NCBI GenBank assembly: GCA_014584695.1
Contig: JACTMI010000004.1
Coordinates: 62,001-126,000 of the forward strand
Direction of reading: 5' to 3'
DNA: 64,000 bases
Source of the DNA: Acidobacteriota bacterium
GTDB lineage: Bacteria > Acidobacteriota > Thermoanaerobaculia > Multivoradales > JAGPDF01
Below the pieces are notes generated by a model. It was not told the origin of the DNA and ran no database searches. It was given only the letters and a program-made list of their open reading frames with translations. Below are positions 6,829 to 46,021 of the stretch, piece after piece. Within the stretch, counting starts at the first letter, position 1, and each line of letters starts with the position of its first letter. A program made the translations under genes and the position numbers.

Positions 6829-7665
6829 ATGAACGACCGCCGCTCCCGCCTCCGCGTCGGGCTCGCGCAGATCGACGCGCGGCTGGGCGACGTCGACGCG
6901 AACCTCGACAAGCACCTCGCCTGGATCGAGCGCGCGCGCGCCGAACGGGTCGACCTGCTGCTGTTCCCCGAGCTCTCGCTCACCGGCTACCGGCTGCTCC
7001 ACCTGACCTCCCGCGTCGCGCTGCGGCCCGCCGAATCGCCGGTCGTGGCGCGGCTGGCGGCGGCGGCGCCCGAGCTGGCGGTGGTGGTGGGGCTGGTCGA
7101 GGAGGACGAGCGCGGCTTCCTCTTCAACACCGCCCTGCTGCTGCACGGCGGTCGGATCGAGCACGTCCACCGCAAGCTCTACCTGCCCACCTACGGCATC
7201 TTCCAAGAGGGGCGCTTCTTCGGCGAGGGCAAGCGCCTGGAGCTCTGCCGGCTGTTCGGTAACCCGTTCGGCATCCTGGTCTGCGAGGACTTCTGGCACT
7301 CCGATCCGGCGGAGAAGCTGGTGCGGGCGGGAGCCAAGCTGCTGGCGGTCGTCTCGGCCGCGCCGGGGCGGATCGGCGCCGCGCCGATGCCGGTGTCGCA
7401 GGAGGCCTGGGAGTCGCTGACCCGCGCCTCGGCGCTGCTCAACACCTGCTGGGTCCTCTACTGCGGGCGGGTCGGCTGGGAAGAGGGGACGTTCTACACC
7501 GGCGGCAGCCACGTCGTCCGCCCGGGCGGCGAGCTGCTGGCCCGCGCGGCCTACCTCGAAGAGGAGCTGCTGGTGGCCGAGATCGACCTGCGCGAGGTCG
7601 ACCGTCTCCGCTGGCGGCTGCCGATCCTGGACGCCGAGCGAACCGACATCGAGGGACCGTCATGA
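6829..7665 (+). CDS. Nitrilase-superfamily amidase, probable glutaminase subunit of NAD synthetase
   Basis: 278 residues covering one complete carbon-nitrogen hydrolase domain. The catalytic triad is visible as Glu48 (LLFPELSLTG), Lys116 (VHRKLYLPTYG) and Cys152 (LVCEDFWHSD). The wording around the cysteine is that of the glutaminase domain of glutamine-dependent NAD synthetases. The stop overlaps the nadE start by 4 bp, so the two are co-translated. In many bacteria this domain and the synthetase are fused; here they are separate chains, which should form a complex that channels ammonia from glutamine to NadE. A free-standing role on another amide cannot be excluded from sequence alone. Confidence 0.85.
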   Translation: MNDRRSRLRVGLAQIDARLGDVDANLDKHLAWIERARAERVDLLLFPELSLTGYRLLHLTSRVALRPAESPVVARLAAAAPELAVVVGLVEEDERGFLFNTALLLHGGRIEHVHRKLYLPTYGIFQEGRFFGEGKRLELCRLFGNPFGILVCEDFWHSDPAEKLVRAGAKLLAVVSAAPGRIGAAPMPVSQEAWESLTRASALLNTCWVLYCGRVGWEEGTFYTGGSHVVRPGGELLARAAYLEEELLVAEIDLREVDRLRWRLPILDAERTDIEGPS

Positions 7666-41580: not shown

Positions 41581-44361
<2,781 letters not shown>

Positions 44362-44420
44362 GCGGCATCCGAACGAGCGCAGCGGGCAATTGAGCCCGAC
44401 GCCATAGAGGAGGCTCACCG

Positions 44421-44492
44421 ATGGCCACCAAGAAGGCGGCGAAGAAGCCCGCCAAGAAGGCGGCGAAGAAGGCGGCCAAGAAGAAGAAGTAA
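44421..44492 (+). CDS. 23-residue Lys/Ala-rich histone H1-like peptide
   Basis: The frame ATG to TAA encodes MATKKAAKKPAKKAAKKAAK followed by KKK: 14 lysines, 7 alanines and one proline. A strong GAGGAGG site lies 7 nt before the ATG, so translation is likely in spite of the length. The AAKK/PAKK repeats are those of H1/HC1-type C-terminal tails that neutralise DNA. It follows nrdJ by 59 bp and precedes a GC-rich hairpin. A role in compacting DNA or RNA is inferred from composition only. Confidence 0.65.
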   Translation: MATKKAAKKPAKKAAKKAAKKKK

Positions 44493-44540: not shown

Positions 44541-44656
44541 CCGTATCCTGTCGTCGCAGCACCGGAGCCTGGCCGGGAGGCCCGGCTCGTTTTCTTTCTG
44601 GGCGCAAGCGCGCGGGGGCTGCGCGGCGGGGCCGCGGTCGGCTAAGCTCCGACTCC

Positions 44657-45205
44657 ATGGTCGCACCCGCCGATCCCTCCCCGTCGAGCGCCAAACTCTG
44701 GTGGGTGCTGGCCGGCCTGCTGGGCGCGGGGATCGCCGCCTGGGCCTGGCTGGCCTTCCTGGCGCCGGGCGAGGCCGCTGGGCGCGCCGAGGACGGCACC
44801 ATGCCCGCATTCGAGCTGCCGGCGCTCGACGGCCGCGCCGTGACCGCGGCGGACCTGCGCGGCCGCGTCGTGCTGATCGACTTCTGGGCGACCTGGTGCG
44901 GCCCCTGCCACATCCAGGCGGAGATCCTGGCGAAGATCTACCCGGCCGCGCGCGGACGGGGCGCGGAGTTCTTCGGACTCGCGACCGGCGAGCCGGAAGA
45001 GATCGTCCGGGAGTTCCTGGCCGGCAAGCCGCTGCCCTATCCGGTTCTGCTCGATCCCGCGAGCCGGGTCGAGGCGGCGCTGGAGGTGGTCGGTCTGCCG
45101 ACCCTGGTGGTGCTCGATCGCCAGGGTCGAATCGTCTTCCGGCATACCGGCCTGATCGACGGCAACACCCTGGAGCGCGTGCTGGCGGAGGCCGAGCGGT
45201 CCTGA
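44657..45205 (+). CDS. TlpA-like membrane-anchored thioredoxin
   Basis: 182 residues. An N-terminal TM anchor (LWWVLAGLLGAGIAAWAWLAFL) puts the domain in the periplasm. FELPALDGRAVTAADLRGRVVLIDFWATW precedes the active site WCGPCH, and VGLPTLVVLDRQGRI has the cis-proline. It likely reduces or exchanges disulfides of exported proteins or of cytochrome c. TAAGCT lies 8 nt before the ATG. Confidence 0.9.
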   Translation: MVAPADPSPSSAKLWWVLAGLLGAGIAAWAWLAFLAPGEAAGRAEDGTMPAFELPALDGRAVTAADLRGRVVLIDFWATWCGPCHIQAEILAKIYPAARGRGAEFFGLATGEPEEIVREFLAGKPLPYPVLLDPASRVEAALEVVGLPTLVVLDRQGRIVFRHTGLIDGNTLERVLAEAERS

Positions 45206-45213
45206 CCCTGCCG

Positions 45214-45747
45214 GTGCAGCTCGAGCTGCCGTTCGACCGGCCCCGGCCCCGGCGACCGGCGCGGCGCCCCCCTTCGCGCCGGAACCTCGCCGCCCTGGCG
45301 CGCTTGGCGCGCTGGCTGCTCGCGCGTCTCGGGGCCGGTGGGCGCCTCCAGGCGCGGCTCGCGGTCGAATGGAACCCCCGGTTGCGCACCGCGCTCGGCC
45401 GCGCTGACGGCGCCCGGCGCGCGCTCGAGCTCAACCCCCGCCTGCTCGACCGTCACCCGGACGAGCTCGTGCCGACGCTGATCCACGAGCTCTGTCACCT
45501 GGCCGTCGGGGTGCGCGAGGGCCACGGGCCGAGCTGGCGGGCCGCCATGGCCGCTCTCGGCCAGCCACCCACCGCTTGCCACCGGCTCGACGTCAGCGGC
45601 CTCGAGTTGCGCCGGCGCCGCCGGTGGCGCTGGCGCTGCCGCGACTGCGGCGATCTCTACGAGCGCAGCCATCGCGGCGCGCGCCGATTCCGCTGTGGCG
45701 CCTGCGGCGGGCCGCTGCGGGTGGACGGCGAGATCGCGTCCCCCTGA
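45214..45747 (+). CDS. SprT-like zinc metalloprotease with C-terminal zinc ribbon
   Basis: 177 residues from the GTG at 45214; the earlier CTG at 45202 overlapping the tlpA stop is an alternative. The catalytic motif is HELCHLAVGVREGHGPSW with a downstream His, the SprT arrangement. A C-terminal zinc ribbon has CRDCG and CGACG pairs (WRCRDCGDLYERSHRGARRF). The eukaryotic relative Spartan removes DNA-protein crosslinks; the bacterial role is not established. The N-terminal 30 residues are Arg/Pro-rich. Confidence 0.82.
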   Translation: MQLELPFDRPRPRRPARRPPSRRNLAALARLARWLLARLGAGGRLQARLAVEWNPRLRTALGRADGARRALELNPRLLDRHPDELVPTLIHELCHLAVGVREGHGPSWRAAMAALGQPPTACHRLDVSGLELRRRRRWRWRCRDCGDLYERSHRGARRFRCGACGGPLRVDGEIASP

Positions 45748-45800
45748 ACCGCGACCCCTCCCCACCTCCGCGACCACCCCCCACCCCCACAAAGAAGAGA

Positions 45801-45995
45801 CCAGCGGAGCGAGCCGCCAGGCGAGCGACCGCGGCGGGGTGAGGCCAGCGGATTCACTCCGCTGGCCGAGGGGAGGGCGCGTGCCCTCCCCTGCGAGACT
45901 GAACCAGCGGAGCGAGCCGTGAGGCTCGCGACCGCGGCGGGGTGAGGCCAGCGGATTCACTCCGCTGGCCGAGGGGAGGGCGCGTGCCCTCCCCT
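45801..45995. repeat. Two tandem copies of a double-hairpin palindromic element
   Basis: Copies start at 45801 and 45904 (period 103 bp) and are nearly identical. Each holds GGCCAGCGGA-TTCAC-TCCGCTGGCC (10 bp stem; 45843-45867 and 45946-45970) and GGGGAGGGC-GCGT-GCCCTCCCC (9 bp stem; 45870-45891 in copy 1). Copy 2 adds CGAGCC-GTGA-GGCTCG. A partial third piece (GCGTGCCCTCCCCTT) follows at 46010-46024. The zone fills the 340 bp between convergent sprT-like and OmpA-type genes, and resembles REP/BIME-type elements. Confidence 0.85.
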
Positions 45996-46021
45996 TTCAG
46001 ATGAGACCCGCGTGCCCTCCC

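What the first reader, a model, noticed from the sequence alone, without database searches (positions are those of the whole stretch)
44421..44492. 23-residue Lys/Ala histone-tail peptide gene after nrdJ
The peptide is a bare H1-like tail with 14 lysines, preceded by GAGGAGG and followed by a hairpin. Free-standing proteins this short and basic are rarely annotated. Location after ribonucleotide reductase hints at a link with DNA synthesis.
Basis: partly seen in the sequence, partly recalled or inferred. Interest (0 to 1): 0.6.

Follow-up and report, generated by a model that had tools for sequence, protein, structure and literature searches.

The report
Tiny conserved lysine-alanine peptide gene
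A 23-amino-acid, half-lysine peptide resembling the tail of histone H1 is a real gene kept by selection, and it belongs to what looks like an uncatalogued family of 13-37-residue peptides found in many lineages of one bacterial phylum (Acidobacteriota), probably working as a minimal coat for DNA, RNA or another polyanion.

Summary
The ORF at 44421-44492 is real: MATKKAAKKPAKKAAKKAAKKKK, with 12 lysines (not 14), SD GAGGAGG, 59 nt after nrdJ and followed by an intrinsic terminator. Every readable sister genome of two genera (5 of 5) has it at the same place, 23-33 aa long, with in-frame length changes, a near-invariant hairpin+SD leader, the same terminator and a TlpA-like gene downstream. Longer H1-like K/A proteins (about 58-170 aa) sit after nrdJ in several other members of the order. 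More important, the same kind of micro-gene occurs across the Acidobacteriota far from nrdJ. In one large family 111 of 150 genomes carry its leader, and 29 of 30 loci read encode a 13-37 aa peptide, about half lysine. Codon differences there are 147 synonymous to 23 non-synonymous, and every complete locus tested has a terminator. So this is a selected, apparently uncatalogued micro-protein family. Its nrdJ position is peculiar to part of one order, so a link with DNA synthesis is not generally supported. Function (polyanion binding, most likely nucleoid) is inferred. The own genome also has a 107-aa H1-like protein elsewhere. Closest known kinds: chlamydial Hc2, the AlgP/PhaF KPAA tail, the HupB tail.

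The parts
44421..44492 (+). micro-gene: MATKKAAKKPAKKAAKKAAKKKK, 23 aa, 12 Lys, all Lys codons AAG
   Evidence: frame conserved in G000-G004 with in-frame indels
44407..44413 (+). Shine-Dalgarno GAGGAGG, 7 nt before ATG
   Evidence: invariant in five genomes
44383..44413 (+). conserved leader: 5-bp hairpin CGGGC-AATTGA-GCCCG (44383-44398), then ACGCCATA and the SD
   Evidence: alignment of five genomes; found at this locus only, in 5 of 72 genomes of the order, control 0; fold
44565..44598 (+). intrinsic terminator GAGCC-t-GGCC-GGGA-GGCC-c-GGCTC followed by GTTTTCTTT
   Evidence: stem kept in all five genomes, loop varies
41581..44361 (+). nrdJ, class II (B12-dependent) ribonucleotide reductase, gene directly upstream
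   Evidence: PF08471, PF02867, PF12637
44657..45205 (+). TlpA-like (Redoxin/AhpC-TSA) thioredoxin gene after the terminator; homologue at the same place in G001-G004
45205..45747 (+). SprT-like gene (start uncertain), syntenic in sister genomes where the stretch read reaches it

Best explanation
A real, translated micro-gene. It makes a bare, disordered polycation equivalent to a short piece of a histone-H1 C-terminal tail, and it belongs to an Acidobacteriota micro-protein family of 13-37 residues with the layout leader/SD, (K/A)n peptide, intrinsic terminator. In this lineage it lies at the end of the nrdJ transcript (co-transcription inferred from spacing and terminator). Most likely the peptide is made in quantity and binds polyanions electrostatically, chiefly nucleoid DNA and perhaps RNA, neutralising charge and aiding compaction; hence selection keeps lysine density but tolerates changes of length and spacer residues. 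Shown here: existence, conservation, coding selection, expression signals. Inferred: abundance, binding target, function.
For: Conserved frame, SD, leader and terminator in all five assessable genomes of two genera, while the rest of the intergenic DNA has diverged. Codon differences in that set: 29/12/58 at positions 1/2/3. Copies in another family: 147 synonymous against 23 non-synonymous, 164 of 194 differences at position 3. A terminator-like hairpin within 110 nt of the stop in 43 of 43 loci, against 45 of 860 shuffles and 4 of 43 random stretches. Found in about eleven families of the phylum by an exact pattern, reversed control 1. Long H1-like K/A proteins at the same nrdJ position and a long paralog elsewhere in family-f1 genomes. 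KPAA-repeat peptides of AlgP bind DNA in vitro, and Hc2 varies in number of lysine-rich repeats (PMC9239181, PMC2848022).
Against: No direct evidence of translation, abundance or DNA binding. Composition alone cannot separate DNA from RNA, ribosome or polyphosphate as target. No Pfam or NCBIfam model reaches its cut-off even for the long forms. The nrdJ linkage is patchy and absent in the copies read outside the order. Some of the conservation could reflect an RNA function of the transcript.
Confidence: 0.5

Rival explanations
1. It is a tiny ribosomal or RNA-binding structural protein, working like bTHX or eL41: a short basic peptide that fills rRNA and helps ribosome assembly or stability.
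For: Size and charge suit such peptides (own knowledge). Strong SD, short transcript with its own terminator, wide occurrence in the phylum. In one family the gene often lies next to an RsmE-like gene (16S rRNA methyltransferase by motif).
Against: Length varies almost threefold (13-37 aa) and the sequence is a near-repeat without fixed positions, unlike bTHX or eL41. The RsmE neighbourhood is not universal.
Confidence: 0.15
2. It is a polyphosphate- or other polyanion-granule binding peptide, as the AlgP KPAA tail is needed for spacing polyphosphate granules.
For: The AlgP C-terminal tail has a similar composition and AlgP sits on polyphosphate granules (PMC9239181).
Against: No polyphosphate gene was recognised beside the copies read (not searched systematically); AlgP also has an N-terminal domain, absent here.
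Confidence: 0.12
3. It is a regulatory leader ORF: 12 lysine codons followed by a terminator could sense lysyl-tRNA and control read-through into the TlpA-like gene.
For: Lys-rich short ORF before a conserved terminator.
Against: The stretch between stop codon and terminator is not conserved, so no shared antiterminator is seen. The downstream genes are not lysine genes. In many relatives the micro-gene ends at its terminator facing a convergent gene. Forms of 58-170 aa sit at the same place in other genomes.
Confidence: 0.06
4. It is a degenerate remnant of a longer H1-like gene without function.
For: Longer K/A genes stand at the same position in other families of the order.
Against: Conserved start, SD, C-terminal KKK-stop and terminator in five species, third-position excess and the same short form kept in other families under strong synonymous bias.
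Confidence: 0.04
5. The conserved product is mainly a small RNA; the AAG-rich ORF is incidental or secondary.
For: A short unit bounded by hairpins; the leader hairpin in family f24 shows compensatory stems (TCCAT/ATGGA, TCGAT/ATCGA, TCCGT/ACGGA), 24 of 39 leaders against 17% in shuffles.
Against: Differences fall at third codon positions (164 of 194) and indels keep frame. No Rfam family overlaps the micro-gene above its gathering score.
Confidence: 0.08

Closest known systems
Hc2 (hctB), histone H1-like protein of Chlamydia (Pfam PF07382)
   Same: Lysine-rich repeats with variable repeat number and hence size (PMC2848022); H1-tail-like composition
   Different: 165-237 aa against 13-37 aa; the 23-mer has no Pfam match, and a 146-aa relative scores 15.3 bits against a cut-off of 40
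AlgP / PhaF KPAA C-terminal tail, Pseudomonas
   Same: Disordered K/A/P repeats; peptides of this kind bind DNA in vitro (PMC9239181)
   Different: There it is the tail of a protein with an N-terminal domain; here the tail stands alone, with KKAA rather than KPAA spacing
HupB eukaryote-like tail, mycobacteria
   Same: Eukaryote-like lysine-rich tail of a nucleoid-associated protein (PMC5676037, title and abstract start; composition from own knowledge)
   Different: Fused to an HU domain, absent here
hist_H1_lk_Burk (NCBIfam NF038053)
   Same: Histone H1-like DNA-binding protein model; weak match to a 146-aa nrdJ-adjacent relative
   Different: 17.6 bits against a cut-off of 80, and no match to the 23-mer
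bTHX and eL41 (tiny basic ribosomal proteins; own knowledge)
   Same: About 25 residues, very basic, free-standing
   Different: Fixed sequences rich in Arg; this family is a Lys/Ala near-repeat of variable length

Membership tests
Hc2 / histone H1-like nucleoprotein (PF07382) | score above Pfam gathering cut-off | tested here: not met
   no hit for the 23-mer and 33-mer; 15.3 bits against 40 for a 146-aa relative; none for the 107-aa paralog
Hc2 / histone H1-like nucleoprotein (PF07382) | length-variable Lys/Ala repeat composition | tested here: met
   13-37 aa short forms and about 58-170 aa long forms, K/A near-repeats
NCBIfam hist_H1_lk_Burk (NF038053) | score above curated cut-off | tested here: not met
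   17.6 against 80 for a relative, none for the 23-mer
AlgP/PhaF | N-terminal domain plus KPAA tail | tested here: not met
   the whole ORF is 23 aa of K/A/P/T; tail-like composition only
H1-type nucleoid protein (works like) | binds and compacts DNA | not testable with these tools
   needs biochemistry; only composition and the analogy to KPAA peptides (PMC9239181)
Acidobacteriota mini H1-tail micro-genes (defined here) | SD, 13-37 aa ORF at about 43-69% Lys, coding selection, intrinsic terminator close after the stop | tested here: met
amino-acid attenuation leader peptide | conserved antiterminator/terminator switch before a lysine-related gene | tested here: not met
   region between stop and terminator diverged; downstream TlpA-like and SprT-like genes, or a convergent gene in relatives
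known structured RNA (Rfam 15) | match at gathering score over the element | tested here: not met
   none in the window; none overlapping the micro-gene at gathering score

The most novel reading that the evidence does not exclude
A conserved family of 13-37-residue all-tail 'mini-histone' peptides, occurring across many Acidobacteriota lineages and missing from the family libraries searched, that serves as an abundant nucleoid or ribosome polycation: among the smallest conserved structural chromatin-type proteins known, with evolution preserving charge density rather than sequence or length.
Probability: 0.35. Interest if true: 0.8.

Novelty: new variant of a known kind. Interest (0 to 1): 0.62.

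Why it matters
H1-like lysine/alanine tails are known in bacteria as parts of larger proteins (AlgP, HupB) or as proteins of roughly 165-240 aa (Hc2). A selected gene that makes nothing but 13-37 residues of such tail, found in many genera of a large environmental phylum, would be a minimal natural test of what an unstructured polycation does in a cell. Genes this short fall below usual annotation lengths and match no Pfam or NCBIfam model, so they may be missed routinely. The 13-mers (for example MAAKKKAKKKKKH) make the sequence-independent, charge-only hypothesis directly testable with synthetic peptides and deletions.

Tried and rejected
OX638294 is not in the annotated collections. A first script to find the nrdJ ends failed on most loci and was replaced. 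Protein search with the short peptide is weak through low complexity (E 0.085 to itself); DNA patterns worked. Pfam and NCBIfam gave nothing for the peptide. Rfam: nothing at gathering score in the window and nothing over the micro-genes. A conserved upstream ORF inside the leader (frame reading RAIEPDAIEEA) was considered and dropped: its frame relative to nrdJ and to the peptide differs between genomes, and the changes sit mostly in the hairpin loop (read by eye). nrdJ read-through into the peptide was dropped for the same reason. A tree of NrdJ with K/A presence marked needs 8 changes, at least 6 forced (G060, whose NrdJ row is identical to L041, was left unmarked by mistake although its K/A ORF was printed in the same call, so the true count is slightly lower). 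This means several gains or losses; no single origin is claimed. A search centred on another phylum was not possible. Literature: nothing found linking nrdJ and histone-like peptides or describing the family.

Full report
OBSERVATION. The reported ORF is present exactly as stated: 44421-44492 +, MATKKAAKKPAKKAAKKAAKKKK, with GAGGAGG at 44407-44413. It has 12 lysines, not 14. It follows nrdJ (41581-44361; class II by Pfam) by 59 nt. A terminator-like hairpin, GAGCC-t-GGCC-GGGA-GGCC-c-GGCTC plus GTTTTCTTT, lies at 44565-44598. No other ORF of 20 aa or more in the 64-kb window reaches 25% Lys, and 60 Markov-1 resamplings of the window gave none.

CLOSE RELATIVES. NrdJ was found in 57 of 59 related genomes and the DNA after it was read in those fetched. 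In the window's own family the peptide gene follows nrdJ in all five genomes of genera g1 and g2 where the place can be read: G000 23 aa, G001 33 aa (MATKKAAKKATKKAAKKPAKKAAKKATKKAKKK), G002 26 aa, G003 24 aa, G004 23 aa (MATKKAAKKPAKKTAKKTVKKKK). In G006 the contig ends inside nrdJ, in G005 nrdJ was not found, and in G007 (genus g3) the gene is absent after nrdJ. The alignment shows islands of conservation in otherwise diverged intergenic DNA: a leader CGGGCAATnnnGCCCG-acGCCATAGAGGAGG (hairpin with a variable loop, then the SD), the ORF with in-frame indels, and the terminator. The leader occurs at this place only, in 5 of 72 genomes of the order, reversed control 0. Codon differences in the five ORFs are 29/12/58 by position, 38 synonymous and 32 non-synonymous codon differences, and all 68 Lys codons are AAG (nrdJ itself uses 46 AAG to 2 AAA). 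A TlpA-like thioredoxin gene follows in all five, with an SprT-like gene behind it where the stretch reaches.

LONGER RELATIVES. In other members of the order (family f3 and some named Thermoanaerobaculia/Acidobacteria contigs) a longer K/A protein stands after nrdJ: 104 aa (L011/L095), about 58 aa from its likely internal start (L018), 146 aa (L097), about 148 aa (L090), about 160 aa (L041/G060), about 140-167 aa (L118, L119) and an Arg/Lys-rich frame in L101. On a NrdJ tree the trait is scattered (8 changes, at least 6 forced), so repeated gain or loss is needed and common ancestry of the short and long forms is not shown. Independently, genomes of the window's family carry a separate long H1-like protein elsewhere, in G000 107 aa with an Ala/Pro/Met tail (G000:C3:14267-14587 -), with relatives in G001, G002, G004, G006, G007 and a fragment in G003.

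THE FAMILY IS WIDER THAN THE LOCUS. A pattern for a short K-rich ORF closed by KKK-stop was run over 396 genomes of the phylum. It hit 33 genomes, with 1 hit to the reversed control; 4 hits are not K/A peptides (L223-L225) or are doubtful (L244). The rest are 17-26 aa peptides such as MATKKAAKKAPAKKAAKKAAKKK in families f1, f10, f14, f17, f24, f42, f60, f61, f74, f75 and f79 (for the loci read). Most carry a purine-rich SD. Outside the window's family none of those read is next to nrdJ.

In family f24 the leader AGGGAGAAYAG before ATGGCA, first seen in loci found by the peptide pattern, was searched on its own: 111 of 150 genomes (62 of 79 genera), reversed control 0. Of 30 loci read, 29 encode a peptide of 13-37 aa with about 43-69% Lys (one is an unrelated 78-aa ORF); the shortest are 13 aa, for example MAAKKKAKKKKKH. 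Among pairs of equal length and at most 2 differing residues there are 147 synonymous to 23 non-synonymous codon differences, and differences by codon position are 16/14/164 (pairs are not independent, and the limit of 2 residues itself favours synonymous change, but the pairs were not chosen by DNA identity). That is strong evidence for selection on the peptide. A terminator-like hairpin of at least 8 bp lies within 110 nt of the stop in 43 of 43 loci, against 45 of 860 shuffles and 4 of 43 random stretches. A hairpin just before the SD has compensatory stems (TCCAT/ATGGA, TCGAT/ATCGA, TCCGT/ACGGA) in 24 of 39 leaders against 17% in mononucleotide shuffles; relatedness was not corrected for. 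Neighbours in f24 are often a divergent thiolase gene and an RsmE-like gene or a convergent gene (by sequence motif only).

MECHANISM. What is shown: a selected, translated-looking micro-gene with its own expression signals, repeated across the phylum. What is inferred: the product is an unstructured polycation that binds nucleic acid or another polyanion. Support is by analogy: AlgP's KPAA tail resembles H1 and derived peptides bind DNA (PMC9239181), and Hc2 varies in number of lysine-rich repeats (PMC2848022). Free tolerance of length and spacer residues with retention of lysine density fits a charge-based role better than a docking peptide, which is why a ribosomal role is rated lower. Attenuation is disfavoured because no antiterminator region is conserved and many copies are monocistronic. 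The nrdJ location probably reflects shared transcription in this lineage and is not a defining feature of the family.

LIMITS. Family identities f1 to f79 are unnamed in the tool. Prevalence outside Acidobacteriota was not testable, although a 30-aa example stands in a contig labelled Deltaproteobacteria (L068). The exact-pattern searches underestimate numbers. Absence of literature rests on an open-access library only, and whether some copies are already annotated in public records was not tested.

Noticed in passing
L027 just after nrdJ (stop near 6916) and L046 (near 6859): A different small basic protein, MARNEVTSKKAGTAASKTLRSANASKNAKTAAGSALTQRPNRKR (44 aa; similar in L046), stands directly after nrdJ in two Acidobacteriota genomes; no Pfam match.
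   Followed up: partly
G000:C3:14267-14587 - (L182, L213): Own genome encodes a separate 107-aa H1-like K/A protein with an Ala/Pro/Met-rich C-terminal end; relatives in sister genomes; no Pfam match.
   Followed up: partly
L068 7965-8057 +: 30-aa peptide MAAKKKAKKAKKKSKAKKKAPSKKKGSKKK with AGGAGG SD in a contig labelled Deltaproteobacteria: mini H1-tail genes may extend beyond Acidobacteriota.
   Followed up: partly
L264 1152-1198: Acido-Lenti-1 RNA (Rfam RF01687, above gathering score), a few hundred nt from a 14-aa micro-gene.
   Followed up: no
window 45800-46000: Two near-identical stretches (ccagcggattcactccgctggccgaggggagggcgcgtgccctcccct) in the intergenic region after the SprT-like gene (read).
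   Followed up: no
window 1-64000: No Rfam family at gathering score, so no cobalamin riboswitch is recognised before this B12-dependent nrdJ.
   Followed up: no
f10 loci L245-L248: The f10 copies share a distinct leader, CCCGTACGGCATGAAAGG then a GGTGAGC-type SD, unlike f1 and f24: each family has its own conserved leader.
   Followed up: no
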